From: a virus
Length of the DNA: 22,266 nucleotides
IMG/VR virus record: IMGVR_UViG_3300031656_000043
Coordinates: 1-22,266 of that record
Reading direction: 5' to 3' (one strand)
Under the pieces are notes generated by a model that saw nothing but the letters and a program-made list of their open reading frames with translations, made no database searches and was not told the DNA's origin. Position 1 is the first letter of the stretch. Every line of letters begins with the position of its first letter. Below are positions 4,160 to 19,587 of the stretch, piece by piece. The translations under genes and the position numbers were made by a program.

Positions 4160-4627
4160 TTAGAACTGAGTGTCATCTGCTTCTGAATCATCAATATCAA
4201 AGTCAACTGAACCAGTGTACTCGATTAGGTCAGTGATCTGGATTGCAGTTAGGATAGTAGATATACCCTGACGACCAGCTACATCGTATTCTCTACGATA
4301 TACTTTAACATTACCTTTAGATCCATTGCCAATCTTAATCTTAGCGTCAATCTTTTGCTTCTTACCATCGACTAGCTGGACAGGGTCGTTAGCTTCCCCA
4401 TCTTTACGTACAGCTTTACGTTTCAGGTTGATAGCAACTCGACTTGGATCATCTTTGACTGGCTTAACGTTACCAAATCCACTAAGTTCTTCGCTTCTAT
4501 CTGCGGATACTACTAGTTGACACTCCCATTGTAAGGTTCCAAACGGATCAGTGGGGCTATCAGGATCTACTTTGACATAGTTAAGAGTTACATCACGGAT
4601 GATTGAAGTTCCAAGAATTGCGGTCAT
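4160..4627 (-). CDS. Single-stranded DNA-binding protein, T7 gp2.5-like
   Basis: A 155-residue predicted OB-fold protein that would coat single-stranded DNA during replication. Support comes from the region 86-139 (VDGKKQKIDAKIKIGNGSKG, then ILTAIQITDLIEY), which follows the same order as the last strands of T7 gp2.5 (an IGGGSK segment, then a strand ending in VELATF), and from the acidic C-terminus DIDDSEADDTQF ending in phenylalanine, the hallmark tail that contacts polymerase and helicase. T7 gp2.5 is longer (about 230 residues), so this is a compact form. It is followed by an intrinsic terminator and preceded by only a weak AAGG ribosome site. Another possibly related protein is at 11201-11686. 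Confidence 0.65.
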   Translation of the reverse strand: MTAILGTSIIRDVTLNYVKVDPDSPTDPFGTLQWECQLVVSADRSEELSGFGNVKPVKDDPSRVAINLKRKAVRKDGEANDPVQLVDGKKQKIDAKIKIGNGSKGNVKVYRREYDVAGRQGISTILTAIQITDLIEYTGSVDFDIDDSEADDTQF

Positions 4628-4688: not shown

Positions 4689-5087
4689 TTAGATTAAATC
4701 TTTAAGTCTTACTTCTTTATGTTCATTCCAGTTGCCAGACTCAATGGTCGGGCACTTATCGTACCTATCATCGTCTAGTGTGTAGATGTATGTGGTACCT
4801 AAGGCTGTCTCAATGAGTTCTCTTTCGTAGAAGTTACTCTCACCCTCACCACGGTACCCCTCTAATCTATCCAAGCGAGAGAGGGTTGCATCGTCTATCT
4901 CGTACACCTCTACGAGAACTCTTTTATTACCTGATCGGATACCGGGGAACCCACCTAAGGAAAACATTTGATAGTTAGGCGCAGTGAATACAGTACCTAC
5001 CATTTTAGAGTTAGATAACAGTACGTTGTTACCATTACCCTTACGTAGTGTACCGTATACTGCTACCTTATACAAATCATTTAACAT
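4689..5087 (-). CDS. Gamma-glutamylcyclotransferase-like protein
   Basis: A 132-residue protein of the GGCT/AIG2-like fold, which releases 5-oxoproline from gamma-glutamyl amides or peptides. Diagnostic segments are VAVYGTLRKGNGN at 8-20 (the glycine-rich substrate loop), GGFPGI at 45-50, VEVYEID at 59-65, LDRLEGY at 72-78 and FYERE at 87-91. It starts with ATG at 5087, with GGAGGGTTAAT just upstream; that ribosome site covers the stop of the ATP-grasp gene, so the two are translationally coupled. As the last gene of the amidoligase operon it may remove or recycle gamma-glutamyl groups made by the upstream ligases, which is inference from family and context. Confidence 0.85.
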   Translation of the reverse strand: MLNDLYKVAVYGTLRKGNGNNVLLSNSKMVGTVFTAPNYQMFSLGGFPGIRSGNKRVLVEVYEIDDATLSRLDRLEGYRGEGESNFYERELIETALGTTYIYTLDDDRYDKCPTIESGNWNEHKEVRLKDLI

Positions 5088-5088
5088 A

Positions 5089-6321
5089 TTAACCCTCCAC
5101 TAAATGTATTTGACTACTAGGTAGGTCTAGTTCTATGTGGCATCGTAAGGTATCATCTGACCTAGGGGAGAATAGCACACGACATGTGTCCTCTTGTACT
5201 TTCCAATCGTACAGTATAAAGTCACACATAAGACCTGATAGCTCTGATATTGTATGGTAATTGTTAGCTCCATTCTCAGTACCACCTTCTAAAACATAAT
5301 CAACTATATAACTTTTAATGACATCAGATAATATTACTGAGTCTCCAATAGAGTTATAGGTTATCCTTTCATTAGGGGCTGAGCTTGTTAGTAACTGTGA
5401 AGTTCTACGAAGGAAAGTTTTCTTAGCTTCTACCTCATTAAACATGGTGTTAAGGTCTTCAAGCGTCTCTTCAAAGTTATCGATAGGTAAACTTTGACTC
5501 CATTTTATTTGAGCTTTATTGGTTAACATAGACTCTAAGGCTCTCTTGTACCGCTCGATACCCTTAATGCTTGTTAACCCACACGCAGTGTTGACTTCTA
5601 TTACAGTAGCTTTACCACGTCTTTCATTCCATATAACATCTACAGCTCCGAAGTCTAAGCCCAATGCAACAACAGCTTTAATAGCCTCAGATTCTACAAG
5701 AGGATTAGGGTTTAAGCCTTCAGTTACAAAGATGAATCCATTAGCAGTGTTACGTATTTGGTAGTCAACGATACGACTATCACTATATCTTGGGGCTTTA
5801 CGTTGTAAGAAGATAGCCTCTTGGCCTACAACATGGACACGGTACTCGTCTCTCTTCTTCATATACTTAGTGTATAGAGGTGCTTTAGGTACAGCATCCT
5901 TAGCAAGTATACTTTCGTCATAGCTTATTAATTCAAGGCCATCACCAGAGTGACCTTGCATTACGTTACGTACAACTACATCGTTACCTTCAGTGTACCA
6001 TCGTCTTGCAACACTGACCTTAGATGTCCAGTCTGGTATAGACACAGGGCTATCTTGATTAGCATCGTTGTACTGTTCGATAGCCTTAAAGAAATCTAAC
6101 TTATGAGATGCTAATCTTACGTTATCTGATACGTTGTACACTTTAACAGAGGGTAAGTGTGACAGGTTAGTTGTTGAGTTACCCCAGTTAATGATGCTAG
6201 TGTTAGGGTTATCAACTACCCTTGAGTTAGTTAGGTTCATTCTTTTACAACCCAGTTCATTAGCTATTACAACAGCAGATTTACTGGATGATTTGTATGG
6301 AAGTACTAATAGTTTACTCAT
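5089..6321 (-). CDS. ATP-grasp ligase
   Basis: A 410-residue enzyme expected to activate a carboxylate with ATP and join it to an amine or thiol. The pre-ATP-grasp part is residues 1-75; SHKLDFFKAIE at 72-82 leads into the ATP-grasp; VVVRNVMQGHSGDGL at 115-129 is the glycine-rich phosphate loop; YTKYMKKRDEYRVHVVG at 150-166 is the central strand with the conserved Lys/Glu; GAVDVIW at 225-231 and ATVIEVNTACGL at 238-249 carry the metal-binding Asp, Glu and Asn. Residues 265-410 form an extra C-terminal region of unknown fold. It overlaps the amidotransferase stop by 4 nt (ATGA). Resemblance to RimK/glutathione-synthetase-type ATP-grasps suggests peptide-bond formation; the substrate is unknown. 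Confidence 0.88.
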   Translation of the reverse strand: MSKLLVLPYKSSSKSAVVIANELGCKRMNLTNSRVVDNPNTSIINWGNSTTNLSHLPSVKVYNVSDNVRLASHKLDFFKAIEQYNDANQDSPVSIPDWTSKVSVARRWYTEGNDVVVRNVMQGHSGDGLELISYDESILAKDAVPKAPLYTKYMKKRDEYRVHVVGQEAIFLQRKAPRYSDSRIVDYQIRNTANGFIFVTEGLNPNPLVESEAIKAVVALGLDFGAVDVIWNERRGKATVIEVNTACGLTSIKGIERYKRALESMLTNKAQIKWSQSLPIDNFEETLEDLNTMFNEVEAKKTFLRRTSQLLTSSAPNERITYNSIGDSVILSDVIKSYIVDYVLEGGTENGANNYHTISELSGLMCDFILYDWKVQEDTCRVLFSPRSDDTLRCHIELDLPSSQIHLVEG

Positions 6322-7436
6322 CTAAATGCCCTTTGGTTTATGGTTGACGCTAGCGCAGCGTCTTTTGATAGTATTTTATCTACGATTTCAGGCCTACCTA
6401 CGTTGTTAACATCACCCTCTATGATCTCTGCTAGCCAAGGTTCTCTTATGATAAGGATATCTTTTCCTTTATCATTAATAACAGATTGTACTATGCCTGT
6501 GTAGTACCCAGCAATAGAGTCATTGGGCTGTGCATAGCACTTGATAGTCATAGGTACTTTGCAAGTACTTACACCTAGTAGGGTACCCAAAGTTTTAGAT
6601 GATACAACATCAGGTAACCCGTGTGTGTAGAACTCAACCTCGTCCCCTATCTTAAGGTTGTAAGACGATAAAGGGTTTGCTGCTTTATAACTTTTAATGT
6701 TCCATGATTGATACGAAGGGCTAGTTATTACTTTCTTAGGTGCTAACTTAACAGTTCTAATAGTGAGTTCTATATTAGTCTTAGACATATCGAAGGTAAG
6801 CAGTTCACCAGCCTTAACTTCTTTGATGTCATACTTGATACTGTTTCTAGTTAGAGCTGCCTCAAGCATGAATCTTTCAGAAGCATAATAGTAATTACTT
6901 TTCTCTTTATCTATAGCATACCACATAGGTCGCTCACTGTTGCGTACTATATAGAACTTAAGTTCATGGTCATTGTACCAAGTCAAAGCAAAGGCACCGT
7001 GAAGTTTACTTATAACCTCTTCAGGTTCTTTTGCTAACCCCATAGCCCATGCGATATTCTCACTGTCCACTTCAAAGTCTTTATGATCTGGTAGTGTAGT
7101 TTGATCAGTCAAGGTACCGTTGTGGCATAGGGTCACGTTACCATAGGTGAATGGGTGTGCGTTGTCATCATTGATACTACCTTGGGTTGCGTACCTGTTG
7201 TGACCCATCAAGAAGCTACCCGATATACTATTGATCAAGGTGTTTGCTGCATCTAACTGTAAGAAATCACTTGACATTAGTGCACGTTTGTACACACTTA
7301 CTTCGTTATCTTTGTTGTCAGTAGCAACACCAGTACTATGAGGGCCTCTAAGGGCATCCATATATAACAGTTGCTTGAACACTTTGTTCGTTTGAAAAGT
7401 AAGACTGTTTGATACTACCCCTACTAGACCGCACAT
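6318..7436 (-). CDS. Class II glutamine amidotransferase
   Basis: Predicted N-terminal nucleophile enzyme that hydrolyses glutamine and passes on ammonia. After removal of Met1, Cys2 would be the nucleophile (MCGLVGVVSN). Other signature elements are ALRGPHSTG at 28-36, the GHNRYATQG glutamine-binding segment at 78-86, HPF at 94-96, the CHNGTL oxyanion segment at 104-109 and DSEN at 124-127. The amidotransferase domain covers about residues 1-220; residues 220-372 do not show an asparagine-synthetase, phosphoribosyltransferase or GFAT isomerase domain that I can recognise, so the acceptor is probably another enzyme of the operon. ATG at 7436 has AAGGA 7 nt upstream and overlaps the amidoligase gene by 13 nt. 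Confidence 0.9.
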   Translation of the reverse strand: MCGLVGVVSNSLTFQTNKVFKQLLYMDALRGPHSTGVATDNKDNEVSVYKRALMSSDFLQLDAANTLINSISGSFLMGHNRYATQGSINDDNAHPFTYGNVTLCHNGTLTDQTTLPDHKDFEVDSENIAWAMGLAKEPEEVISKLHGAFALTWYNDHELKFYIVRNSERPMWYAIDKEKSNYYYASERFMLEAALTRNSIKYDIKEVKAGELLTFDMSKTNIELTIRTVKLAPKKVITSPSYQSWNIKSYKAANPLSSYNLKIGDEVEFYTHGLPDVVSSKTLGTLLGVSTCKVPMTIKCYAQPNDSIAGYYTGIVQSVINDKGKDILIIREPWLAEIIEGDVNNVGRPEIVDKILSKDAALASTINQRAFR

Positions 7437-8347
7437 AATTTATCCTTTATCTTATCCAATTGGTTGCCACCTTGTAATGATTCTATTAGATTACGGTGGG
7501 TTGTGTTCATTTTAGTGTGGTGTATTATATCTTCAGCTACCCACACACCTTCATATATCTTATTACGTACACGATTAGCAGCTTTTATGTTAGGCACTAA
7601 TAGTTTATCACCAAAGACTTCTCTAAGCATTGCGATGTGACCGCTAGTACTCAGTAGTTTAGGTAAGTCTGACAGGTTGTTGTCATACATTTGAACCCAC
7701 ATCTTTAGAGACAAGAGGTGGTTGATCCAATTGATAAGGGTACTGCTGTCACATGTACCACGGTGACCACGGAACTCTAAAGAACCAAAGTTAATGACAG
7801 ACAACAGGTTTACACTAGAGTACTTAGTCCAGTTACGTGACGTTAAGAACTCAGGCCCGTTTTCTATTAGGTTTATTAGCTTAGACACTTGGTCTTGACC
7901 ACGATACAGAGACAAGGAATAGATACTCTCATCCCTCTCTTGACCACAGACACTGAACAGGTAAGGTTCTACCATAGCATACAGTATCACTAGGTTTAGA
8001 AGTTCGTTCCAAGTCATATCTCTAACGTCTACGTGAACATGCACAGAGGTACGTGCTGAGAAGTTCTTTTGAGGTATAGATGTCAACACTTTGTCTAGTG
8101 CTACCAGTCTACGACATGCACCAGCACCACCAATAGGCCCTTTGAATACAAACTCAACGCCATTCTCACGGAGAGATCCGTCAGTAGTGCAACGCCATCC
8201 GGGTACGCTTATCATTCTTTGCATCTGTTCTACTTCAACTTCGACACCTATCCTAGTGTTAGATAGTAGTGCACCTGTCTTAGTCTTATCATTTTTATAA
8301 GGTACTGCTTCGCTGTGCTGCCACAGTGATTGAATTGTGGAATCCAT
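7424..8347 (-). CDS. Putative amidoligase (glutamine-synthetase-like fold)
   Basis: A 307-residue protein with the core of the Amidoligase_2 group of COOH-NH2 ligases: GVEVEVE at 34-40 (metal-binding acidic strand), TDGSL at 55-59 with VEFVFKGP at 64-71, SVHVHVDV at 101-108 and SLEFRGHRG at 189-197. The order ExE, DGSL, E-V-P, HVHV, EFR is typical for enzymes that couple ATP cleavage to amide bond formation. I place the start at ATG 8347 (GAGGG 9 nt upstream) rather than the TTG at 8356, which touches the ribosome site. It overlaps the end of the 231-aa gene by 53 nt and the amidotransferase start by 13 nt. An ammonia- or amine-using partner of the amidotransferase is a plausible reading. Confidence 0.82.
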   Translation of the reverse strand: MDSTIQSLWQHSEAVPYKNDKTKTGALLSNTRIGVEVEVEQMQRMISVPGWRCTTDGSLRENGVEFVFKGPIGGAGACRRLVALDKVLTSIPQKNFSARTSVHVHVDVRDMTWNELLNLVILYAMVEPYLFSVCGQERDESIYSLSLYRGQDQVSKLINLIENGPEFLTSRNWTKYSSVNLLSVINFGSLEFRGHRGTCDSSTLINWINHLLSLKMWVQMYDNNLSDLPKLLSTSGHIAMLREVFGDKLLVPNIKAANRVRNKIYEGVWVAEDIIHHTKMNTTHRNLIESLQGGNQLDKIKDKLCAV

Positions 8348-8990
8348 TTGGGACAACCCTCTTTAGTATAGGAATGATGTGGCTTACCTCTGGTACTATA
8401 GATATACTGTTGTCTTTTACGATACCAACAGCATGCTTCTTATAGTATAACAGTGGTGTCATTACACCAAATCGATTAGAGATACAAAAGTTAGATGAGA
8501 TTGCTCTAGCTACACTACTGCCAGAGCTAACAGATTCTATGGCTTGCATGTAGGGTGTGTACTCAGGTCTATACAGTAGTTGTATGTCTTCTGAACTAAA
8601 GCTACTTGCTCTGTATCTTTCAGAAGTAAAGGATAACTCTTCAAGTATAGTAGAGTCAAAGACAGTGGTAGCTAGGTTAGATAGTCTTAACCCTTTCTTC
8701 CATTGACGTTGTGCTATCCTCTTGACAAAACACACATGATCTCTCACGTTAACCATACCTAACTCAGGCCATTGTAACTTGTACTTAACTTTAGGATCAT
8801 CCTTACCTACAACAAAGACATCTTCATTGAATCTTTTAAAGCTTAGTATACATCCATTCATCTCTTGGTTGACGTTTATCAACTGAGCAGGGTAGTAGTC
8901 ATCATCGTCTCTTGTTTTAATTTGAATGTAAGTGTCTAAGTAGGTACCGCTTACATCTCTAGCGTTAATATCTTTGAATGGATTGTTCAT
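8295..8990 (-). CDS. Unrecognised protein between the two amidoligases
   Basis: A 231-residue soluble protein that I cannot assign. The N-terminal 75 residues look like a small beta-rich domain (TYIQIKTRDDDDYYPAQLI, then ILSFKRFNEDVFVVG), possibly an SH3- or OB-like barrel; the middle has RQWKKGLRLSNL and a helical part; the end is beta-prone with LLYYKKHAVGIV. No membrane segment, signal peptide or zinc motif is visible. ATG at 8990 overlaps the preceding ligase stop as TAATG, with GAGGATTGCTTA as ribosome site, and the 3' end overlaps the next ligase by 53 nt. Being locked between two ligase genes suggests a structural or substrate-binding partner, which is inference. Confidence 0.75.
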   Translation of the reverse strand: MNNPFKDINARDVSGTYLDTYIQIKTRDDDDYYPAQLINVNQEMNGCILSFKRFNEDVFVVGKDDPKVKYKLQWPELGMVNVRDHVCFVKRIAQRQWKKGLRLSNLATTVFDSTILEELSFTSERYRASSFSSEDIQLLYRPEYTPYMQAIESVSSGSSVARAISSNFCISNRFGVMTPLLYYKKHAVGIVKDNSISIVPEVSHIIPILKRVVPNGFHNSITVAAQRSSTL

Positions 8991-9796
8991 TAAGCAATCC
9001 TCTGTATACCTAGCTCATCTATTATTGCACGAGCAGATTGTTTGTCACTCTTATTAATAACTTTGTTAAGAGTTTTATTATCCACTAACTCTAGGAATTC
9101 AGGTAACATACCTAGATTACTAGTGGCCCATAGGGTAGTGTCGTACACCCAAGACATGAGATCATCAGAGCTTAACCAGAAATTACTGAGAGATCTATAC
9201 TCGACACCGTAAGGTTTGTATCTCATTGATCCTGCTTTACCATACAACTTACGTCTCTGATTGTCAGGGTCTACCTCGATAGATGGTAAGCCTAGTACAA
9301 AGTCTAGCATCTTAACGAGAGCGATACTGTCTGCTTTGTTGGGGTCATCATAGCCTACATGTACGTGACCACCTGCAGTTCTTAAGTTAACCTTAGAGCC
9401 TTGAGGTCTTGGCATTTCACGTCCACTCCAAGCATTCCACTCAGCACTACAACCAAATTCCATAGCCATAGGGCCATAGCTTTCGAGCTCACCTTTGTCG
9501 AACATGTGACTAGCAATGATGACTGGTTGTAAGTCTTTGTTTTCTAAGATGTTTTTAAGAGATGACATAACAGAGTTCATATTGTAAAGGAACTCTATCT
9601 TATTACTGGCAGGGTTGATGTTAAATTCTGCTAGGACATTGTCTTCTTGAACACCACCGTCTGTTACTGGACGAGGGAAGTCTTTACTACCACCTACGTT
9701 ACCTATAGCAGATGTTATGGTACCGGTATGATTCGCTACGAATACCTCAGGGTCTGCACCCACTGTTACGTTTTCCAATTTAGATTTATGTAGCAT
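8990..9796 (-). CDS. phiEco32-like COOH-NH2 ligase, type 2
   Basis: A 268-residue glutamine-synthetase-fold ligase. The sequence carries the signature set of the phage COOH-NH2 ligase type 2 family (PF14395): TVGADPEVFV at 11-20, a GNVGGSKDFPRPV segment, VQEDNVLAEFNINPA at 49-63 (metal and ATP site), GCSAEWNAW at 115-123, AGGHVHVGYD at 141-150, and GVEYRSLSNFWL at 197-208. The frame extends to 9817, but ATG at 9796 has AAGGGAG 6 nt upstream, overlapping the stop of the previous gene, so it is preferred. The family is named for phage phiEco32, where homologues are found with other amide-bond enzymes. It is clearly a different subfamily from the ligase at 7424-8347. Confidence 0.88.
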   Translation of the reverse strand: MLHKSKLENVTVGADPEVFVANHTGTITSAIGNVGGSKDFPRPVTDGGVQEDNVLAEFNINPASNKIEFLYNMNSVMSSLKNILENKDLQPVIIASHMFDKGELESYGPMAMEFGCSAEWNAWSGREMPRPQGSKVNLRTAGGHVHVGYDDPNKADSIALVKMLDFVLGLPSIEVDPDNQRRKLYGKAGSMRYKPYGVEYRSLSNFWLSSDDLMSWVYDTTLWATSNLGMLPEFLELVDNKTLNKVINKSDKQSARAIIDELGIQRIA

Positions 9797-9806
9797 GTTA
9801 ACTCCC

Positions 9807-10730
9807 TTAGGATTCAATTAACTTTATGAGTTGGGCTATTTGTTCCTTGTCCATTGCCAGATCATGTCGTCTTCTATAGTCTAGGTTACTATGCTTGCTT
9901 ACATCTTCTAGCCCTAGTATATCCTTAGCTACACGGGCTTGAAGGTTACCTGTCCGGTATGATGAAGCGGGTTTCTTACAGAAGAACCTACCTAAAGCTT
10001 TGGGATCTGTAGTAGCGTACCGATTGTAGTGACTCTTATCTCTGAAGTAATCTTGTGTACCACCGAAGAGTTCTTTATCGTAGTCATCGCACAGTAATCT
10101 ATTAAGCATTATCTTAGCACCGATTATGCTAAAGTACTGAGGGTATACGATAGTGTTCTCACAAGAATACAAAGGGGATATTGAATCTAAAGGTGAGCAT
10201 TCAGGGTTAAAGCTTTCGGTGTCTATTATATCACTAGCTTGTTGGCTATTGATAGCGAAGGATGTTACTAGTGCTGTGTCAGGGTTAGTGTCATGTTGTT
10301 TCATCACCCTATCCCACACCCTTACGATGTTAGGCTGGTACTGCGGGGCTCTAAGGAGGAACAACGTGAGCATCATCCTGTCGGCTGGCATCTCGGTTGT
10401 AACCTTTAGACCAGACTTGTACCCCTCTGTTGTGCTGGGTATGTCATCCTTTATACTCTCGGTTATAAAAGGTAGGGTCATTAGATAATCCCACCACTTA
10501 GTAGCTAACTCCCATGACATTTCTTTTGTCATCTTGTAGCCTTCAAGGTTCATACAGTCTTCGTTAGAGTAGTACCTTTGAAAGAAAGGTAGGTACTTGA
10601 TAGCGTTAACTCTATTGTGCCTACTCATCTGATCATTAGATAATACATGGTTGACTGGAGCGAAGCATGCTCTTGACACATACTTAAGTACAGTCATATT
10701 ACTTAACGTTACTTCGAATGAAACTGCCAT
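9807..10730 (-). CDS. Unrecognised protein of the amidoligase operon
   Basis: A 307-residue soluble protein without a family that I can name. ATG at 10730 is chosen because AGAGGA lies 7 nt upstream; the frame itself is open to 10766. The first half is helical with many aromatics (YLPFFQRYYSNEDC, LATKWWDYLMTLPF); the centre has MMLTLFLLRAPQYQPNIVRVWDRV; the C-terminus is basic (SNLDYRRRHDLAMDKEQIAQLIKLI). Seven cysteines are scattered but do not form a clear metal site. It is the second gene of the operon, upstream of the phiEco32-like ligase, and is an obvious candidate for a substrate, carrier or regulator of the pathway; nothing in the sequence proves this. Confidence 0.75.
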   Translation of the reverse strand: MAVSFEVTLSNMTVLKYVSRACFAPVNHVLSNDQMSRHNRVNAIKYLPFFQRYYSNEDCMNLEGYKMTKEMSWELATKWWDYLMTLPFITESIKDDIPSTTEGYKSGLKVTTEMPADRMMLTLFLLRAPQYQPNIVRVWDRVMKQHDTNPDTALVTSFAINSQQASDIIDTESFNPECSPLDSISPLYSCENTIVYPQYFSIIGAKIMLNRLLCDDYDKELFGGTQDYFRDKSHYNRYATTDPKALGRFFCKKPASSYRTGNLQARVAKDILGLEDVSKHSNLDYRRRHDLAMDKEQIAQLIKLIES

Positions 10731-10747
10731 TACAATTCCTCTTGGTT

Positions 10748-11017
10748 TTATATGATAGGTTTGCACAGGTAAGAAGCAGAGAACACTTCGTCTTTATGGA
10801 GAGCAGGCCAAGGGCGTGTGTACTTACGTACCTTAGCTGATAGGTCTGAGTCCTCTATGGTACTTTTCTTCCTACATCTGCTGAACACCTGAGGTTTTGT
10901 TAGCCCTGTTATCATTGATAGTTGATTGACGGTGTACTCAGCGTCTGGTATTAATCTACTATGGGTTGTCTTGTTCACTATGAATATTGGTTTGCCTCTG
11001 ACATAATCTTTTGGCAT
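10748..11017 (-). CDS. Small basic protein with HTH-like segment
   Basis: An 89-residue basic protein, first in the amidoligase operon. The frame opens at 11029, but ATG at 11017 has GAGG 6 nt upstream, whereas the ATG at 11029 has no ribosome site and lies only a few bases after promoter-like repeat A3. The segment YTVNQLSMITGLTKPQVFSRCRKK (about residues 28-51) resembles a helix-turn-helix of the kind found in phage DNA-binding accessory proteins and in the tails of HNH homing nucleases. No nuclease motif is present. It might regulate the operon or bind DNA elsewhere; it may also be the remnant of a larger protein. Confidence 0.6.
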   Translation of the reverse strand: MPKDYVRGKPIFIVNKTTHSRLIPDAEYTVNQLSMITGLTKPQVFSRCRKKSTIEDSDLSAKVRKYTRPWPALHKDEVFSASYLCKPII

Positions 11018-11033
11018 GTGATACCTCATTGCT

Positions 11034-11066
11034 TTTGCATGTAGTGTGTCGGTTGTAAGAAAAAAG
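11034..11066 (-). promoter_or_regulatory. Promoter-like repeat A3
   Basis: On the minus strand: TTTTTT (tail of the terminator at 11057-11095), then TTACAACCGACAC, AC and TACATGCAAAA. It ends 17 nt before the chosen start codon at 11017, leaving room for a short leader carrying ATGAGG as ribosome site. Same composite motif as copies A1, A2 and A4. Confidence 0.5.
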
Positions 11067-11095
11067 GAAGCGAGGCTGCTTAGCGTCAGCCCCGC
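11057..11095 (-). terminator. Intrinsic terminator between repeats A4 and A3
   Basis: On the minus strand GCGGGGCTG pairs with CAGCCTCGC (9 bp, one G-U wobble) across an 8-nt loop, followed by TTCCTTTTTTCTT. It sits downstream of repeat A4 with no gene in between, so transcripts begun at A4 would end here unless they read through. Confidence 0.8.
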
Positions 11096-11115: not shown

Positions 11116-11150
11116 AATTTGCATGTAGTGTTGTCGGTTACAACAAAAAA
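11116..11150 (-). promoter_or_regulatory. Promoter-like repeat A4
   Basis: On the minus strand: TTTTTT (tail of the terminator at 11145-11190), then TTGTAACCGACAA, CAC and TACATGCAAATT. Fourth copy of the composite motif. It lies directly after the terminator of the 161-aa gene. Confidence 0.5.
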
Positions 11151-11200: not shown

Positions 11201-11686
11201 TTAGAAGACTGCACCATTTGGTGCTACTGACTCCATCTCTATGTCCATCTCTAATAGAGCAGCAGTTAGTGCGTCTTGTTTAGACTTCTTAACATCGAAG
11301 CTCAGAGCACGAACAGCGGAGATACGAGCATTGGTACCAGCAACAAACTTGGTACCATCTTTACGGACACCTGCTGGGTAGTCACGCAGCTCGAAGAGAA
11401 GGTGAGCTTTAGCTCCATTCTCCAGATCATCTTCGATGTCGTTACCAGCAGCATCTTGAATAGATACAGGTGGCACATCGACATCCATATTGCCATACTT
11501 GGCATTGGTAGAGTACCAGTACCCGCCATCGTTAGCTTGCTTTAGTCCTATCTCAGCTAGACCGTCACCAGTTAGGTGGGCTCCGTACTGTAGACCAAAC
11601 TTACCATTGTACGATCTGCGCAACTTACACGCAGAAATCGTGATGTTAGGTACAACTACACTTCGAATTTTAATCGAATCTTTCAT
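11201..11686 (-). CDS. Possible second ssDNA-binding (OB-fold) protein
   Basis: A 161-residue protein encoded as a single-gene unit, with GGAG 10 nt before ATG at 11686 and a strong terminator just after the stop. The C-terminal half (VSIQDAAGNDIEDDLENGAKAH.. then GTNARISAVRALSF) follows the same order of elements as the gp2.5-like protein at 4160-4627 (VQLVDGKKQKI.., IGNGSKG.., ILTAIQITDL), and both end in phenylalanine, which is why I suggest an OB-fold relative. The acidic tail is less clear (LLEMDIEMESV at 144-154), and the N-terminal half, with ITISACKLRRSYNGKFGLQYGAHL, does not obviously align. It could instead be an unrelated abundant early protein. Confidence 0.4.
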   Translation of the reverse strand: MKDSIKIRSVVVPNITISACKLRRSYNGKFGLQYGAHLTGDGLAEIGLKQANDGGYWYSTNAKYGNMDVDVPPVSIQDAAGNDIEDDLENGAKAHLLFELRDYPAGVRKDGTKFVAGTNARISAVRALSFDVKKSKQDALTAALLEMDIEMESVAPNGAVF

Positions 11687-12046: not shown

Positions 12047-12707
12047 TACACACACTCCATGCCCCCTAAGGGACTCTATTAAACAGGTGTACCTGCAGGG
12101 TATCCACAGGTACTGAAAGGGTCTTACGGGGTCTATAGGGTCTTAAGGGCTATGTTACCCTAGGGACTCCCCATGTCCTCCGTTACTAGCAGATATCTTC
12201 GGGATCTCTAGGGATCTCTATGATATACTACAAGGAGACCGAAGGGCTCTACAGGAACAGTGCAGGAACCTATCAGGGGGGTACAAAGCTATATTAGGGT
12301 ACCGTATATCACAGGGTTATTCTATACACTCCCTAAAGACCCTTTAAGTCCCATTAACCCTTAAGCTCCATTATAGTACCTTATAGAGGGAAACCATTAT
12401 AGTACCTTATAGAGAGAGAGAATACGTAGGAAGATCAGAGCTTACCCGACAGTATGCTTGGAGTAGTGTCCCGAAGACACTCACAGATACACTATAGCTT
12501 AGGGTACGGAGGGGGCCCTAAGCCTATAAGGGCCCTATGGGATCTTATAGAGAATATAGATATCTAGTGTAGAGAATAGATACCCCCCTCCCCTTAAGGG
12601 GCTATAGGGCATTCTCGACACGGCTAGGAACCTTAGAGGTAAAGCTATAGGATATATTCCTATGGTTCTTCTCTCTCTGGTAAACTTTAAGGTCTGGGAG
12701 GACTACA
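12047..12707. other. Repeat-rich non-coding region between divergent gene sets
   Basis: About 660 nt with no convincing gene on either strand. It separates the leftward from the rightward transcription units. It contains three GGGTCT repeats (starts 12119, 12129, 12138), a perfect tandem pair of GGGATCTCTA (12201-12220), a GAGACC-GAA-GGGCTC hairpin copy (12235-12249), two perfect 21-nt direct repeats carrying AGTACCTTATAGAG (12368-12388 and 12394-12414), an inverted repeat GGGCCCT/AGGGCCC (12513-12535), the palindrome CCCCTTAAGGGG (12590-12601), and many CTATAG or TTATAG elements. A promoter for the late genes should lie here; an origin or packaging site is possible. Function is inferred only from position and repeat density. 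Confidence 0.6.
12368..12414 (+). repeat. Two perfect 21-nt direct repeats, motif B
   Basis: Copies at 12368-12388 and 12394-12414 are identical over 21 nt with a 26-nt period, and both include AGTACCTTATAGAG. A purine run AGAGAGAGAG follows the second. The same core on the minus strand leads the 150-aa gene at 3891-3906. Likely a protein-binding or polymerase-recognition site. Confidence 0.75.
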
Positions 12708-14345
12708 ATGAATAACATGAGAAAGCTTGCGTTAGTTAAAGAATCTAAGAGACGTATAAAGCTAACAGAATACGAGAAGGACTTTCAGCTATTCTCTAAA
12801 GAACAGATAAAGATTTTGACTAAGGATTCTTCTTTAGGGTTTGTACCCTTTGAGTTCAATGAGGCCCAAAGAATAGTAGACGATAAGATTCGTAAGCAGC
12901 TAGAGGAAACAGGCCGTGTTAGGGCTATAATCCTTAAGGGCCGACAGATGGGCTTATCTACCTATGCTACTGGCAGGGTGTTCTGGAAGTCTTACTTCAA
13001 TGCTCACAATAAATCAGTTGTTATGGCACATGACTCAGCCACATCTGATGCCCTCTTCAACATGTCACGTAATACTATTGCTAACATGCCTGATGAGTTT
13101 AGACCAGTCTTTAAGAAGTCCAATGCTAAAGAGATCCTGTTTGATCATAATGAATCAGGCTACAGGCTCTATACCGCAGGATCCCCTGAAGCTGGTCGAG
13201 GTACTACTCCAACCATTGCTCACCTCTCAGAGGTAGCCTTTTGGACTCATGATGAGAAGATCCTAGCTGGTCTCTTTCAGGGTATTTCAGAAGCGAATGG
13301 AACGGAAGTAATACTTGAGTCCACCGCTAATGGTGTTGGTAACGAATTCCATAGGTTATGGAAAGGTGCAGTAGAAGGTGAGAATGATTACCTTCCTATT
13401 TTTGTGCCATGGTACTTGATGCCGGAATACAGACGAACAGTCTTAGAGCCCGAAGCTTTCAAAGAAACCCTATCAAGTGAAGAAGATAAGATACAAGAGA
13501 GGCATGGTCTTGACTTAGAACAACTTTACTGGAGAAGGTTAAAGGTAGCTGAAGGAGGCCTTAGTAAGTTCCGACAAGAATACCCATTGACAGCAGAAGA
13601 AGCATTTCAAACTTCTGGTGCTAATGTGTTTAATATTGAAAAGTTACAATCCCTAATACCCTCACAAGTTATGAAGACTCAGACATTTAATTATGTATCT
13701 TCTTCCTTTGAGGACTTTAAAGATGGGGACATTGAAATATTCCAGTATCCTAAGTTTGATGATAACTTTGTAATAGGTGCTGACTGTGCATTAGGCGTGG
13801 GCCAAGACTACTCAGCCTGTGCAGTTATGAATACAAAGAATGAAGTTGTAGCTTTATATAGAAATAATAGAGTAGATCCTACCAGATATGGTGACTTACT
13901 ATTCTATCTTGGAAGATATTACAACAATGCCTTACTGGCTGTTGAATCTAATTCCTTAGGCATAGCTACACTTAATCGTCTCAAGCAGATGAACTATGTG
14001 AACCTATACCATCAAACCAAAGTAGCTAACGTGTCTAATGAGGAAGGCAGCCGACTTGGTTGGCGTACAACGCAAGCTACTAAACCCATGATCGTGGCGC
14101 ATCTTAAGAACGCAATTGAGAATGATGATATCAATCTTGCGTCCCCTCGGATTATTCAAGAGTGTTTGAGTTACGTGGCTGATGCGAATGGTCGTACCAA
14201 CGCTATTACAGGTGGACATGATGATACTGTAATTGCAACAGCTATAGCCTTTGAAGTCCTAAGAACCCATAGAGATCGATTGGTCTCCAACAGGGTAGGC
14301 TTTCAAAATCAACAGTATGAGGAGGATCATACTAGTTGGCTGTAG
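12708..14345 (+). CDS. terL: Terminase large subunit
   Basis: The DNA-packaging motor ATPase and nuclease, which docks on the portal and translocates DNA into the prohead. The 545-residue protein shows Walker A LKGRQMGLST at 77-85, Walker B-like TIAHLSEVAFW at 169-179, the coupling motif ESTANG at 204-209, and a C-terminal RNase H-fold nuclease with ADCALGVGQDYSACAVM (D359) at 358-374, AVESNSLG at 411-418 (E413) and GGHDDTVIA at 502-510 (D505/D506). Length is normal for the family. The start ATG follows GGGAGGACTACA. It is the first rightward gene and has no small subunit beside it. Confidence 0.95.
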   Translation: MNNMRKLALVKESKRRIKLTEYEKDFQLFSKEQIKILTKDSSLGFVPFEFNEAQRIVDDKIRKQLEETGRVRAIILKGRQMGLSTYATGRVFWKSYFNAHNKSVVMAHDSATSDALFNMSRNTIANMPDEFRPVFKKSNAKEILFDHNESGYRLYTAGSPEAGRGTTPTIAHLSEVAFWTHDEKILAGLFQGISEANGTEVILESTANGVGNEFHRLWKGAVEGENDYLPIFVPWYLMPEYRRTVLEPEAFKETLSSEEDKIQERHGLDLEQLYWRRLKVAEGGLSKFRQEYPLTAEEAFQTSGANVFNIEKLQSLIPSQVMKTQTFNYVSSSFEDFKDGDIEIFQYPKFDDNFVIGADCALGVGQDYSACAVMNTKNEVVALYRNNRVDPTRYGDLLFYLGRYYNNALLAVESNSLGIATLNRLKQMNYVNLYHQTKVANVSNEEGSRLGWRTTQATKPMIVAHLKNAIENDDINLASPRIIQECLSYVADANGRTNAITGGHDDTVIATAIAFEVLRTHRDRLVSNRVGFQNQQYEEDHTSWL

Positions 14346-14492
14346 TTGTACAAGTTTCCCCATTAGTCCTCCAACTGACGTTTCGGTTTAAGGTGACATA
14401 CACGTCTCGGGAAAGAGAAGCTATAGGAACCCGTTTTTAATTAATTGATTGATTGATGGATTGTGCTAATCCACTTAAGAGGATACTGTAAC
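14346..14492 (+). promoter_or_regulatory. Intergenic leader before the portal gene
   Basis: A 147-nt gap, long for this genome. It holds an inverted pair GACGT/ACGTC (14377-14381 and 14402-14406), between which TTTAAGGTGACATA (14387-14400) resembles the SP6 phage promoter core TTTAGGTGACA; a CGGG/CCCG pair followed by TTTTT (14408-14438), a weak terminator; an ATTG tandem run; and the hairpin TGGATT-GTGCT-AATCCA (14457-14473) just before the portal ribosome site, possibly an RNA-processing or stabilising stem. Confidence 0.35.
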
Positions 14493-16721
14493 ATGAATGA
14501 GCCTGACGGTTATATGGAACAAGTAACAGATGAAGAGTTGATTACAATCATTAACTCAGAAGTAGCAGGCTCTCAAGGTAACTTCCTTGACTCCTCTGAT
14601 CTATCAGACGAAAGAGAAAAGGCTACTTACGAATATGCGATGCAGCCTATTGGGCACTTAGCCCCACAGGGTGTATCTAAGATTGTATCCTCAGATACCG
14701 TAGAGGCTATCGAAGGGTACTCAGCAGTTCTTTCTGAATTGCTATTGAATAATAAAAAGCTAGCAAAGTTTATACCATACTCACAAACTGCTATGGGTGT
14801 ACACCAAGCAAGAGTAGCTTCTGATGTAACTAACTATTGTATCTTTAAGAAGAACAAAGGTTGGGAGCTTATTAATACTTGGATTAAGTCTGCTCTTCTA
14901 TGGAAGAACGCAGCGGTTGTCTGGGAGTTTGTAGAAGACTACGAGTTTACTTTCCAAGAGTTTGATGAGATAACTACAGAATCCTTAGACATGTTATTGT
15001 CTGATCCTGAAGTAGAAGTGGTAGGTGACCTATACGTTAATACAGGTGGTGTGTACGAAAATGTTCGTGTTAAGCGTACTGTTAATAAGAGTGGAGTTAA
15101 GATTCGTAATATAGAACCTGAGTCTTTCCTTATTAGCCAAGGCGCTTCTTCTATAGATGATGCCTCCTTTGTTGGTCTACGCACAGAGATGACTCGCTCA
15201 GAGATACGTAAGCAGTACCCTGATCACTCTGAGAATATAGATTGGGATACTACTAATAGTACCTATACCTTTGCACAGGCTATTAATAACGAGAAGGCTG
15301 CACGAAGAACCTCAGTAGGCTTAAGCAATCATAGCTTTGGGCAGAACAGTAATAGTGAAGCTAACCAAGTTGTTTCTGTGTTAGAGTGTTGGATGCGGGT
15401 AGATCGTGACGGTGATGGTATCTCCGAGTTAAAGAGATTCATTACTATTAATGATAATATCTTATTCGAAGAAGATGTTGACTCTATCCAGATATGCGAG
15501 CTTAAGGCCTTTGATATCCCACACGAGTGGGCTGGACTGTCTATGGCTGACATGACTAGACCTTCTACTCTAGCATCTACAGCTATCTTGCGTGGCTTTG
15601 TTGAGAATACTTATTTAACTAACTACTCTCCTAAGCTAGCTGATCCTAACGTGGTAGACTTTTCTGCATTACAGAATATGAAACCAAAACAAATTGTACC
15701 TACCAACGGTAACCCTGCAATGGCTGTTCACAACATGCCACCAGAGGCTTTATCTTCGGGTACGGTACCTTTACTTGAGTTCCTGCAGCAGCACAAAGAG
15801 CAAGCCAATGGTTTGTCTAAGGCAGCACAAGGGCTTAATGATACTCTCTATGTGTCCGGTAACTCCGAACAGAAAGTATCGGCTGTTCAATCAGCAGCAC
15901 AAACACGCATCCAGCATATCGCCAGAAGATTCATGGAAACAGGCTTAGCCGCTCTCTGTGAAGGTGTGTATAAGACGATGACTAAAGAAATGCGTGGGCA
16001 AAAGATGGGATACTATGATCGTAATGATTTTTACGGCACAGTTAACATTAGTGAACTACCTGACAATATGATGTTGCAAGTAGAAGCTGACGTTGGTGAC
16101 GCTAGTAATAGTACTATCCTAAGTAAAATGTCAATGATTGGTGAGAAAGTTTTACCTGCTCTTATGGGAGCTGGGTACAAAGGGGCCATAAATCCCACAG
16201 CACCAGCAGTCATTGCCTTTAAAACCATTGAGGCACTAGGTGAAGATCCGTTAGACTACATAGTAGACTACACTTCCGATGAGTACAAAGATTCCGCAAT
16301 GAAAGATAAAGAGAAGGAACAAGAACAAGCAGAGAAGGCAAAGAGTGTTGCTGATATTACTACGCAAACTAAAATTGCTCTTGATCAAGCTAATGTAGAC
16401 TACACTAATGTGCAGTCCCAGAATGCTATTCAAGACAACCTTAAGCAGCTTGTTGTTGCTCTGGATAAATCATATCAAGAATGGGCAAAGTTAAGTTTAT
16501 CTGCAGCTAAAGATGGTTCGGAGCAACCTATCCAACCTGACGTACAAGAGATGTACGGATTAGCTCAGTCTCTAATTCAGCAAACAATGACCCAGCCGAA
16601 GAGTAATCAAGAACCTAAGAAACCTGAACAGCCTCCTGTGCAACAAGAGATGCAAGGTCAAGGATTGACACCAGAAGCTATTCAATCTTTCTTAGGTCAA
16701 GGCGGTGGAGGTATGATGTAG
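14493..16721 (+). CDS. Portal protein
   Basis: Forms the dodecameric ring at the capsid vertex through which DNA enters and leaves. The 742-residue protein, placed straight after the large terminase, has features of large podovirus portals: an early VSSDTVEAIEGYSAVLSELLL segment, ALLWKNAAVVWEF, the calcium-loop-like DRDGDGISELKRF near residue 302, AAQGLNDTLYVSG, a helical AQTRIQHIARRFMETGLAAL, and a long glutamine-rich C-terminal coil ending in a Gly/Met tail. The D-x-DGDG-I-E-x-R phrase is common in P22-like and phiEco32-like portals. The frame extends upstream to a GTG at 14463, but ATG at 14493 has AGAGGA 9 nt before it and is chosen. The larger size than T7 portals (about 535) argues against a classical T7-like head. 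Confidence 0.88.
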   Translation: MNEPDGYMEQVTDEELITIINSEVAGSQGNFLDSSDLSDEREKATYEYAMQPIGHLAPQGVSKIVSSDTVEAIEGYSAVLSELLLNNKKLAKFIPYSQTAMGVHQARVASDVTNYCIFKKNKGWELINTWIKSALLWKNAAVVWEFVEDYEFTFQEFDEITTESLDMLLSDPEVEVVGDLYVNTGGVYENVRVKRTVNKSGVKIRNIEPESFLISQGASSIDDASFVGLRTEMTRSEIRKQYPDHSENIDWDTTNSTYTFAQAINNEKAARRTSVGLSNHSFGQNSNSEANQVVSVLECWMRVDRDGDGISELKRFITINDNILFEEDVDSIQICELKAFDIPHEWAGLSMADMTRPSTLASTAILRGFVENTYLTNYSPKLADPNVVDFSALQNMKPKQIVPTNGNPAMAVHNMPPEALSSGTVPLLEFLQQHKEQANGLSKAAQGLNDTLYVSGNSEQKVSAVQSAAQTRIQHIARRFMETGLAALCEGVYKTMTKEMRGQKMGYYDRNDFYGTVNISELPDNMMLQVEADVGDASNSTILSKMSMIGEKVLPALMGAGYKGAINPTAPAVIAFKTIEALGEDPLDYIVDYTSDEYKDSAMKDKEKEQEQAEKAKSVADITTQTKIALDQANVDYTNVQSQNAIQDNLKQLVVALDKSYQEWAKLSLSAAKDGSEQPIQPDVQEMYGLAQSLIQQTMTQPKSNQEPKKPEQPPVQQEMQGQGLTPEAIQSFLGQGGGGMM

Positions 16722-16741
16722 GAGGTGATTTTCATCTACTG

Positions 16742-16761
16742 AGGGGCCCAGACGGGCCCTT
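16742..16761 (+). terminator. GC-rich hairpin after portal, weak terminator or processing stem
   Basis: AGGGGCCC-AGAC-GGGCCCTT forms an 8-bp stem with one G-U pair and a 4-nt loop. The following sequence CAACTTAAG is not a T-run, so full termination is doubtful; it may lower or process transcripts between portal and the next genes. Confidence 0.45.
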
Positions 16762-16791
16762 CAACTTAAGACACTAACCCGAGGAGATATA

Positions 16792-17139
16792 GTGGATAAG
16801 TATAAACAAGGTGCTAAACGTAAGTTTAAACCTAAGATGGATCAACAGACAGGTGAGTATAAAGCTAACCCGTTTGGAGATTCTCAACAAGCATTAACCC
16901 GAGCAATATTTGCAAGAAAAGAAAGAGATGAGTTCTTTACTGAAGCTTACTCTGACATCGTTGTAGATTTGTTTACTCAATGGTTAGTCACAGAACCCCA
17001 CTGCGTAAAAGAACGTGAGTACTTGTACCACGTAGCTATGGCATTAGGTTCCGTTAAAGAACGTCTTATTAACGTTGAAACCTACGGGTTTAACCAAGAG
17101 ACGATAGACTACAATAAATCTCAAGAAGGAGATATCTGA
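16792..17139 (+). CDS. Hypothetical protein between portal and scaffold
   Basis: A 115-residue protein starting with GTG at 16792, supported by GAGGAG about 6 nt upstream; no ATG with a ribosome site is found in the frame. The N-terminus is basic (MDKYKQGAKRKFKPKM), the middle helical with ALTRAIFARKERDEFFTEAYSDIVVDLFTQWL, and the C-terminus acidic. It overlaps the next start by one base (TGATG). Position between portal and scaffold in podovirus-like genomes often houses small head-assembly or unknown proteins; no homologue is recognised. Confidence 0.7.
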   Translation: MDKYKQGAKRKFKPKMDQQTGEYKANPFGDSQQALTRAIFARKERDEFFTEAYSDIVVDLFTQWLVTEPHCVKEREYLYHVAMALGSVKERLINVETYGFNQETIDYNKSQEGDI

Positions 17140-17336: not shown

Positions 17337-17358
17337 GACTAATACAGGATAACAATTT

Positions 17359-18462: not shown

Positions 18463-18501
18463 CAAAAATAGATTTAATATAATATATAAGGAAATTTAAT
18501 A

Positions 18502-19542: not shown

Positions 19543-19556
19543 TCTCTAAGACTATT

Positions 19557-19587
19557 AGGGGCTCCTTAAAGGGGGCCCCTTCTTTTT
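19557..19587 (+). terminator. Strong intrinsic terminator after the capsid gene
   Basis: AGGGGCTCC pairs with GGGGCCCCT (9 bp, one wobble) across the loop TTAAAG and is followed by TCTTTTT. It would lower expression of tail genes relative to capsid. Confidence 0.9.

What the first reader, a model, noticed from the sequence alone, without database searches (positions are those of the whole stretch)
4689..11017. Phage operon that combines two amidoligases, an ATP-grasp ligase, a class II amidotransferase and a GGCT-like enzyme
Five enzymes of amide/peptide bond chemistry sit in one leftward unit with 1-62 nt overlaps and couplings. Seen in sequence: the GS-fold signatures (GADPEVFV / GGHVHVGY in one, GVEVEVE / HVHVDV in the other), the ATP-grasp loops, Cys2 plus GHNRYATQG in the amidotransferase, and YGTLR in the cyclotransferase. 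Established: related genes occur together in phiEco32-like phages, and comparative genomics has proposed peptide or cell-wall modification (recalled, not looked up). Inference: glutamine-derived ammonia is fed to ligases that build an amide on a small peptide or on host peptidoglycan/glutathione, with the cyclotransferase cleaving or recycling gamma-glutamyl groups. The chemistry and target appear to be unknown.
Basis: partly seen in the sequence, partly recalled or inferred. Interest (0 to 1): 0.85.

Follow-up and report, generated by a model that had tools for sequence, protein, structure and literature searches.

The report
Phage gamma-glutamyl amide-bond enzyme cassette
A set of phage genes that probably builds and trims glutamate-linked amide bonds in infected bacteria is really there and is widespread in phages; it was already known as a cassette, its product is still unknown, and the comparison of many relatives points to chemistry on the side-chain end of glutamate rather than to DNA modification.

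Summary
On the minus strand lie GGCT, ATP-grasp, class II GATase, Amidoligase_2, an unnamed 231-aa protein (U231) and a COOH.NH2 ligase in one tight unit. The set is published as a 'peptidoglycan modification cassette' of phiEco32-, LUZ24-, PA11- and RIO-1-like phages, and elsewhere as nitrogen-metabolism genes; the passages I read report no test of its product. The window is a diverged new member.

What I add, using the COOH.NH2 ligase as bait: in 70 diverged clusters with long flanks, Amidoligase_2, GATase and ATP-grasp are present in 70 of 70. GGCT is accessory (42), but an unrelated gamma-glutamyl hydrolase family (peptidase C26, PuuD-like) occurs in 48; 67 carry at least one. That the two replace each other is not secured: the hold-out set shows no such tendency. 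U231 is in 51. The COOH.NH2 ligase model has the glutamine-synthetase fold, nearest to YbdK and glutamate-cysteine ligase. Best reading: the module makes and trims gamma-glutamyl-type amides on a soluble amine or peptide. DNA modification is unlikely; peptidoglycan, protein and polyamine targets stay open.

The parts
4689..5087 (-). Gamma-glutamyl cyclotransferase-like protein (GGACT/AIG2 family), 132 aa
   Evidence: PF06094 E 4.9e-22; phrog_2520; nearest solved relative by sequence, UPF0131 protein YtfP 1xhs, E 2.8e-19; Glu76 in 52 of 52 clusters
5089..6321 (-). ATP-grasp ligase, 410 aa
   Evidence: phrog_2599 E 1.4e-64; Pfam ATP-grasp families only below cut-off; K74, E159, R161, K175, D228, E242 in 100 of 100 clusters and N244 in 98 of 100
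6318..7436 (-). Class II (Ntn-type) glutamine amidotransferase, 372 aa, Cys2
   Evidence: PF13522 E 8e-15; phrog_4736 E 4.4e-83; C2 92/102, R81 101/102, N106 101/102, G107 101/102, D124 102/102
7424..8356 (-). Amidoligase_2 (glutamine-synthetase-type carboxylate-amine ligase), 310 aa from TTG; ATG at 8347 likelier
   Evidence: PF12224 27.8 bits, cut-off 22; E39, E41, E68, H106, H108 98/98, E194 and R196 97/98; start
8295..8990 (-). U231: conserved protein of unknown function between the ligases; N-terminal small beta-barrel by model
   Evidence: phrog_11055 E 1.5e-16; in 51 of 70 full-flank clusters; model pLDDT 92.5; no solved structure matched at Foldseek E 0.001, VIA-align Z at most 6.0
8990..9817 (-). 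Phage COOH.NH2 ligase (PF14395), glutamine-synthetase fold; ATG at 9796 likelier than the TTG at 9817
   Evidence: PF14395 E 2.4e-10; phrog_3815 E 4.5e-88; model pLDDT 94.9, Z 14.8 to YbdK; start
9807..10730 (-). U319: upstream gene of unknown function (307 aa from ATG 10730; listed as 319 aa from GTG 10766)
   Evidence: ORF; no Pfam match; weak PHROG match of unknown function; profile finds it in 4 of 41 clusters
10748..11029 (-). U93: first gene of the leftward unit, unknown function (ATG 11029 or 11017)
   Evidence: ORF; no Pfam or PHROG match; 1 of 41 clusters
11070..11095 (-). Terminator-like hairpin just upstream of the unit; possible boundary of transcription
   Evidence: consensus scan only
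4160..4627 (-). Downstream neighbour: gp2.5-like ssDNA-binding protein (replication context, not part of the module)
   Evidence: phrog_112 E 2e-9

Best explanation
A phage-restricted cassette, probably expressed with the replication genes, that forms gamma-glutamyl-type amide bonds on a soluble amine or small peptide and trims them again. Likely steps: the COOH.NH2 ligase (GS fold) uses ATP to activate the gamma-carboxylate of glutamate or of a glutamate-ended compound and joins it to an amine; Amidoligase_2, probably working with U231, makes a second amide; the class II GATase supplies ammonia from glutamine (or itself removes a gamma-glutamyl group); the ATP-grasp enzyme adds a further peptide-like bond; GGCT here, or a PuuD-like C26 hydrolase in many other phages, removes or recycles the gamma-glutamyl group, as in glutamylate-then-deglutamylate pathways (PuuA/PuuD for putrescine, the aniline synthase with its GAT-like hydrolase). 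Shown here: composition, conservation, conserved catalytic-type positions, GS fold of one ligase by model, the second gamma-glutamyl hydrolase family. Inferred: every reaction, the order of steps, the substrate.
For: With the COOH.NH2 ligase as bait, Amidoligase_2, GATase and ATP-grasp are in 70 of 70 full-flank clusters, and all 432 labelled genes within 7 kb in one locus per cluster are on one strand. The top VIA-align rows for the ligase model are YbdK (Z 14.8, rmsd 3.4, 223 aligned), its Salmonella relative (14.2) and plant glutamate-cysteine ligase (14.0), tied within 1 Z, then bifunctional glutathione synthetase (13.7), glutamine synthetases, Dop (13.1) and PafA (12.8); that these work at a glutamate gamma-carboxylate is recalled. 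GGCT in 42 and C26 in 48 of 70 clusters, at least one in 67 (68 if L191's GGCT at E 1.1e-4 is counted). C26 is PF07722 above cut-off in 8 of 8 tested; Cys 65/66, His 65/66, Glu 66/66; PuuD is among the solved relatives of the one searched. 48 of 58 deposited phage records with a C26 match are in the 60 listed of 316 with the COOH.NH2 ligase, against 316 of 50,697 overall (many near-copies). GS-like ligase plus GAT-like gamma-glutamyl hydrolase is a known pairing (PMC11335346 passages; PuuA and PuuD in PMC9397018 passages). No membrane-type segment in the eight window proteins: highest 19-residue hydropathy 1.74.
Against: No reaction or metabolite was measured. Mutual replacement of GGCT and C26 is not established: pooled Fisher p 0.0033 and first set p 7e-4, but the 40 hold-out clusters alone give p 0.70, with 3 lacking both where independence predicts 3.8 (my arithmetic), 23 of 70 have both, and the tree-based pair test had only 2 or 4 supported pairs and was not significant. 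Three hold-out clusters have neither at the set threshold (two if L191 is counted). GS-fold ligases can also work on proteins (PafA). Class I and II amidotransferase folds do more than gamma-glutamyl hydrolysis. The growth effect reported for phage ZRK32 favours a metabolic rival.
Confidence: 0.48

Rival explanations
1. Published view: a peptidoglycan modification cassette. The ligases build unusual linkages in the peptide side chains of cell-wall precursors, altering the surface to stop superinfection.
For: Stated for RIO-1-like, phiEco32, 7-11, PA11, tf, MR299-2, LUZ24, PaP3 and CW02 phages (PMC5498523 section 16) and for phiEco32 (PMC10580990 passages). The proteins look cytosolic, where wall precursors are made. 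A gene annotated as endolysin stands a few genes upstream in A24 and pSal-SNUABM-01 and a holin gene some kb downstream in LUZ24 and UFV-P2.
Against: No experiment was cited in the passages read. GGCT and PuuD-like hydrolases are known for L-gamma-glutamyl amides whereas the wall residue is D-glutamate (recalled). The commonest neighbours are replication genes.
Confidence: 0.22
2. Protein or peptide tagging: the ligases add glutamate, amide or amino acids to a host or phage protein, in the manner of RimK or PafA.
For: Dop and PafA are among the fold matches (Z 13.1 and 12.8); the ATP-grasp family's PHROG is labelled ribosomal protein S6 glutaminyl transferase; phage R2K ATP-grasp enzymes have been proposed to modify host proteins (PMC4431377 passages). 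U231 could hold the target.
Against: Gamma-glutamyl cyclotransferases act mostly on small molecules (recalled); U231 shows no strongly conserved acceptor site (only R95 is kept in 90% or more of 76 clusters).
Confidence: 0.15
3. Auxiliary nitrogen or glutathione metabolism: the genes recycle glutamate, ammonia or glutathione to feed growth.
For: Claimed for Poriferisphaera phage ZRK32, which carries the same set (L010); its authors report that the phage raised growth of Pseudomonas stutzeri 273 three- to eightfold with ammonium (PMC10945688 passages), without a gene-level test in the passages read.
Against: No bacterial donor operon was found: a pattern-based scan of 84,980 species genomes gave 11 loci, all MAG contigs; 9 carry the phage module (L098 in part), and of the 5 of these whose large neighbours were tested 4 lie beside phage replication genes and 1 beside a tail-fibre-like gene; the 2 others lack the module. 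Two GS-fold ligases plus U231 are more than nitrogen supply needs.
Confidence: 0.1
4. DNA hypermodification: the enzymes build an amide-linked group on phage bases.
For: Frequent neighbourhood with primase, helicase and DNA polymerase genes; amidotransferases serve 7-deazaguanine DNA modification (title and start of abstract seen; the rest recalled).
Against: Phage Rembedalsseter carries the whole set, and nanopore comparison of its native and amplified DNA reported nicks but no modified base (PMC11780129 section 20). Phage tf, which has the COOH.NH2 ligase, gave DNA that restriction enzymes cut (PMC3517423 passages).
Confidence: 0.03

Closest known systems
'Peptidoglycan modification cassette' of RIO-1-, phiEco32-, LUZ24- and PA11-like podoviruses (Hardies 2013, cited in PMC5498523; Iyer 2009, not held)
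   Same: Two amidoligases, ATP-grasp, class II GATase and GGCT together amid replication genes; LUZ24 gp16 to gp22 and UFV-P2 have the six genes in the window's order, U231 position included, with one or more small genes between.
   Different: The window's proteins are diverged: the COOH.NH2 ligase is below 60% identical in all 312 records, 45.4% at best among the 60 listed. The function in the name is untested. The counts over 70 clusters and C26 as a frequent further member come from this work.
Puu and aniline-type gamma-glutamylation pathways of bacteria (PuuA/PuuD; AtdA1/AtdA2, NpaA1/NpaA2)
   Same: GS-type ligase that makes a gamma-glutamyl amide plus a hydrolase that cleaves one.
   Different: No oxidase or dioxygenase gene was seen among the module's constant members; two GS-fold ligases, GATase II and ATP-grasp are extra; in the window GGCT is the only candidate cleaving enzyme.
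YbdK and glutamate-cysteine ligases
   Same: Nearest folds to the COOH.NH2 ligase model (Z 14.8 and 14.0, tied).
   Different: 14% and 13% identity; substrate unknown.
Phage ZRK32 'AMG' set (PMC10945688)
   Same: All six genes in the same order (locus L010).
   Different: Read there as nitrogen metabolism; that record is an unverified partial genome.

Membership tests
Phage amidoligase cassette ('peptidoglycan modification cassette') | Two amidoligases, ATP-grasp, class II GATase, GGCT in one same-strand cluster | tested here: met
Phage amidoligase cassette ('peptidoglycan modification cassette') | Lies among DNA replication and metabolism genes | tested here: met
   Window: ssDNA-binding protein, endonuclease VII and ribonucleotide reductase on the same strand
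Phage amidoligase cassette ('peptidoglycan modification cassette') | Changes host peptidoglycan or blocks superinfection | not testable with these tools
   needs infection experiments
GS-fold carboxylate-amine ligase (COOH.NH2 ligase) | Glutamine-synthetase fold | tested here: met
   Model pLDDT 94.9; Z 14.8 YbdK, 235 of 999 chains at Z 8 or more; Foldseek E 2.6e-6 to a glutamine synthetase
GS-fold carboxylate-amine ligase (COOH.NH2 ligase) | Conserved acidic, His and Arg active-site-type positions | tested here: met
   E24, E64, H151, R199, E206, R208 106/106, H153 105/106; their catalytic role by analogy
GS-fold carboxylate-amine ligase (COOH.NH2 ligase) | Gamma-glutamyl transfer | not testable with these tools
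   enzyme assay needed
Amidoligase_2 (PF12224) | Pfam gathering score and conserved Glu/His/Arg | tested here: met
   27.8 against 22 bits; residues; fold not modelled
Class II glutamine amidotransferase | N-terminal Cys nucleophile, Arg, Asn-Gly and Asp of the glutamine site | tested here: met
   C2, R81, N106, G107, D124; PF13522 above cut-off
Gamma-glutamyl cyclotransferase (GGACT/AIG2) | YGxL loop and catalytic Glu | tested here: met
   Y11, G12, L14 51/52 each, E76 52/52; PF06094 E 4.9e-22
ATP-grasp | Pfam ATP-grasp family above gathering score | tested here: inconclusive
   Only below cut-off; phrog_2599 E 1.4e-64 and conserved Lys/Glu/Arg/Asp pattern
R2K ATP-grasp | R2K profile | tested here: inconclusive
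   R2K_3 16.1 bits, cut-off 26.3
Host-derived auxiliary metabolic gene set | Bacterial homologous operon as donor | tested here: inconclusive
   11 MAG loci from a scan of 84,980 genomes; 9 carry the phage module, 2 distant COOH.NH2 ligases lie in other contexts; a pattern search has limited reach
DNA hypermodification system | Modified base in virion DNA | not tested
   No data for this phage; a published negative in one carrier

The most novel reading that the evidence does not exclude
A virus-only pathway that glutamylates and deglutamylates host polyamines or a similar small amine through the gamma-carboxylate, so that the phage controls a cationic or signalling metabolite during DNA replication or against defence; U231 is a dedicated subunit that couples the two ligases. 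One unconfirmed published hint: LUZ24, a carrier, has a bactericidal early protein, gp9, for which a yeast two-hybrid screen gave the host gamma-glutamylpolyamine synthetase SpuB/PauA2 as a potential partner; the authors did not confirm it (PMC4635203 passages).
Probability: 0.13. Interest if true: 0.82.

Novelty: new member of a known kind. Interest (0 to 1): 0.5.

Why it matters
Carriers include much-used phages of Pseudomonas aeruginosa and E. coli (LUZ24, PaP3, phiEco32 relatives, Bas93). Papers that cite Iyer 2009 show that its product has been a matter of proposal since then. If it is a gamma-glutamyl pathway, one targeted metabolomics experiment can find it.

Tried and rejected
U231 as the missing N-terminal part of Amidoligase_2: 11 U231-lacking loci have a 126 to 250 residue N-terminal extension on Amidoligase_2, but profile comparison with U231 showed no relation (probability 0.1%), so a fusion is not claimed. 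Three U231-bearing phages also have such extensions of 101 to 167 residues (L004, L015, L017).

U231 fold: Foldseek found no solved match at E 0.001 or better; VIA-align rows reach only Z 6.0 and mainly span residues 1-136, mostly small beta-barrels (Tudor, Sm-like, ribosomal protein), which may be a common arrangement. BFVD gave 11 matches at E 0.001 or better, none with a named function. A blast of window U231 against deposited phages found nothing, although profiles do find relatives.

GGCT/C26 exchange as strict mutual exclusion: rejected, 23 of 70 clusters have both, and the hold-out shows no negative association. The hold-out was all loci fetched after the first set: those plus the 11 MAG loci. 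It had 68 new clusters, of which 40 had long flanks; the other 28 were not used in the presence counts. In the first set 29 of 41 were usable. A cluster counts as having a gene if any of its long-flank loci has it, so pooling changed a few first-set calls. The tree counts L191 as GGCT-bearing; one search does not. 31 of its 67 inner branches are unsupported.

Promoters: sigma-70-like matches are at chance level (32 against 35.4 in shuffles).

Papers: ten searches. In their listings I saw no title or abstract opening that reports an assay of this cassette. Passages only were read of PMC4431377, PMC3890496, PMC7824862, PMC10580990, PMC10945688, PMC4635203, PMC9397018, PMC11335346, PMC6209634 and PMC3517423; of PMC5498523 and PMC11780129 passages plus section 16 and section 20 in full. 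Iyer 2009 was not held and is known here only through citing papers; Hardies 2013 was not looked up and is known only through PMC5498523.


Full report
What is in the window. The window is a phage fragment with a leftward unit and a rightward head and packaging unit: terminase, portal, scaffold, major head protein and a further virion protein at 12708-20687. Within the leftward unit lie, from right to left, U93 (10748-11029), U319 (9807-10730), a COOH.NH2 ligase (8990-9817), U231 (8295-8990), Amidoligase_2 (7424-8356), a class II glutamine amidotransferase (6318-7436), an ATP-grasp enzyme (5089-6321) and a gamma-glutamyl cyclotransferase-like protein (4689-5087); a gp2.5-like ssDNA-binding protein, endonuclease VII and ribonucleotide reductase follow on the same strand.

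It is a known cassette. tblastn with the COOH.NH2 ligase finds 312 of 50,697 deposited phage records, all below 60% identity, 45.4% at best among the 60 listed. LUZ24 gp16 to gp22, UFV-P2, Cronobacter A24, Escherichia IMEP8 (a Kuravirus; that phiEco32 is one too is recalled) and Bas93, Pseudomonas O4, Aeromonas 4_4572, Salmonella pSal-SNUABM-01, Vibrio 1.262.O and the crAss-like phi14:2 all carry the four core enzymes. The set has been printed as a seven-gene 'peptidoglycan modification cassette' hypothesised to prevent superinfection (PMC5498523 section 16, read in full), as early-region genes in UFV-P2 (PMC3890496 passages) and as nitrogen-metabolism genes of phage ZRK32, whose authors report a growth effect of the phage on a Pseudomonas (PMC10945688 passages). 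I saw no experiment on the product in what I read.

Composition across relatives. I gathered IMG/VR and deposited loci with the COOH.NH2 ligase as bait, called open reading frames mechanically and searched them with profiles grown from the window's proteins. Grouped at 60% identity of the bait, 93 loci fall into 41 clusters: Amidoligase_2 and GATase in 41 of 41, ATP-grasp in 40 of 41 (the exception is a short contig), U231 in 33, GGCT in 22. A hold-out with frozen profiles used the loci of two further scans and the 11 MAG loci: 68 new clusters, 40 with long flanks, and all core genes in 40 of 40. Pooled, 70 clusters have long flanks: core genes 70 of 70, U231 51, GGCT 42. In one locus per cluster all 432 labelled genes within 7 kb of the bait are on one strand, and the median core span is 5154 bases. 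U231 stands next to Amidoligase_2 in 49 of these modules and overlaps it in 41 of the 49, though longest-start calling inflates overlaps. The order of the other genes differs between lineages, so linkage is kept against rearrangement.

A second gamma-glutamyl-cleaving family. Clustering of the remaining neighbours showed one family in 21 of 41 clusters that is not a replication gene. It is peptidase C26: PF07722 above cut-off in 8 of 8 tested, with Cys95 65/66, His197 65/66 and Glu199 66/66, and with PuuD, gamma-glutamyl-GABA hydrolase, among the solved relatives of the one searched. In the first set, 29 long-flank clusters split 14 GGCT only, 9 C26 only, 6 both, 0 neither. In the hold-out 40 split 5, 16, 16 and 3; one of the three, L191, has a GGCT just above the threshold (E 1.1e-4), and the others, L141/L173 and L167, carry two class II GATases. 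Pooled: 19, 25, 23 and 3. So 67 of 70 modules hold at least one enzyme of a gamma-glutamyl-cleaving family. The stronger claim that they replace each other is not secured: pooled p is 0.0033, but the hold-out by itself shows no negative association (p 0.70), and the best tree needs at least 11 changes of GGCT and 9 of C26, with too few supported independent pairs for a test. C26 lies within 1 kb of a core gene in 39 of 51 cases and GGCT in 29 of 41. As a control, 48 of the 58 deposited phage records with a C26 match are among the 60 best of 316 listed with the COOH.NH2 ligase; the other 10 were not in that list. Many of these records are near-copies.

Enzyme state. Catalytic-type positions are kept in nearly all clusters (one length-filtered sequence each): COOH.NH2 ligase E24, E64, H151, R199, E206, R208 106 of 106; Amidoligase_2 E39, E41, E68, H106, H108 98 of 98; GATase R81, N106, G107 101 of 102 and D124 102 of 102, with Cys2 in 92 of 102 (my reading is that some starts are misplaced); ATP-grasp K74, E159, R161, K175, D228, E242 100 of 100; GGCT E76 52 of 52. 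The roles of these residues are by analogy with known families. The predicted COOH.NH2 ligase (pLDDT 94.9) has the glutamine-synthetase fold: YbdK Z 14.8, plant glutamate-cysteine ligase 14.0, bifunctional glutathione synthetase 13.7, glutamine synthetases about 13, Dop 13.1, PafA 12.8 (rows within 1 Z are tied). These are known to work at a glutamate gamma-carboxylate (recalled), which is why I favour gamma-glutamyl chemistry. U231 is modelled with confidence (pLDDT 92.5) but no solved structure was matched as a whole; its N-terminal part is a small beta-barrel. It keeps few invariant residues (only R95 in 90% or more of 76 clusters), which suits a structural or docking role rather than an enzyme; that is inference.

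Phage-restricted. A pattern-based scan of genomes of 84,980 bacterial and archaeal species gave 11 relatives, all on MAG contigs. Nine carry the phage module, L098 in part because its contig is short; of the five whose large neighbours I tested, four (L097, L100, L101, L102) lie beside phage primase, helicase or polymerase genes and one (L096) beside a tail-fibre-like gene. The other two, L104 and L105, are distant COOH.NH2 ligases of 31% and 26% identity in other contexts, beside sulfatase-modifying-enzyme-like or helicase genes. This argues against a recent host-derived metabolic gene set, within the reach of such a scan.

Targets. DNA modification is disfavoured: Rembedalsseter has the whole set and nanopore comparison reported nicks but no modified base (PMC11780129 section 20); DNA of tf, another carrier of the ligase, was cut by several restriction enzymes (PMC3517423 passages). 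Peptidoglycan, protein and small-amine targets remain. In favour of the wall view, genes annotated as endolysin lie a few genes away in A24 and pSal-SNUABM-01 and holin genes some kb away in LUZ24 and UFV-P2. The commoner replication neighbourhood (two DnaB-type helicase families above Pfam's cut-off, in 17 and 12 of 41 clusters, and a polymerase-exonuclease-like family in 29, below cut-off), the cytosolic look of the proteins and the PuuD-like partner lean towards a soluble amine or peptide. The analogy is the GS-like ligase plus GAT-like hydrolase pair that makes and unmakes gamma-glutamylanilide (PMC11335346 passages) and PuuA with PuuD (PMC9397018 passages). One unconfirmed hint for polyamines is the two-hybrid contact of LUZ24 gp9 with host PauA2 (PMC4635203 passages).

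Verdict. A real, well-conserved and already published phage cassette, of which the window is a diverged new member. The new elements are the four-enzyme core counted over 70 clusters, the constant place of U231 where it occurs, the frequent PuuD-like C26 partner, the GS-fold model and published evidence, put together here, against a base modification. They make the old question of its product more directly testable.

Noticed in passing
window 11034-11047 and 11118-11131: An exact 14-nt direct repeat (84 nt apart) on either side of the terminator-like hairpin at 11070-11095, just upstream of the first gene of the unit; a possible regulatory site.
   Followed up: partly
window about 12060-12700: Divergent stretch between the leftward and rightward units with a 24-nt tandem pair (12368-12417) and many short palindrome-like words; possibly an origin or control region.
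   Followed up: no
window 9807-10730: U319 looks loosely alike to ligase-upstream proteins of A24, 4_4572, IMEP8 and LUZ24 (gp14, gp15), with a Cys-Phe-Gly-like stretch near the N-terminus (alignment A3, identities 15 to 21%); relationship not established; no Pfam match.
   Followed up: partly
window 11201-11686: A 161-aa gene before the hairpin, found in 20 of the 95 sequences searched, the window included, without Pfam or PHROG match.
   Followed up: no
L048, L052, L057, L061, L062, L069, L072: A second class II GATase, mostly shorter, follows Amidoligase_2 in a lineage without a recognised U231.
   Followed up: partly
L059, L081, L092: A second ATP-grasp gene lies upstream of the module.
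   Followed up: no
L105 9986-11089 and 14281-15438; L104 3394-4641: Distant COOH.NH2 ligases in a Deltaproteobacteria and an Omnitrophota MAG without the cassette; in L104 two sulfatase-modifying-factor-like genes lie nearby.
   Followed up: partly
L010 (OP650935.1): Phage ZRK32, reported from a planctomycete, has a COOH.NH2 ligase that groups at 60% identity with that of Pseudomonas phage UFV-P2, so its stated host deserves a check.
   Followed up: no
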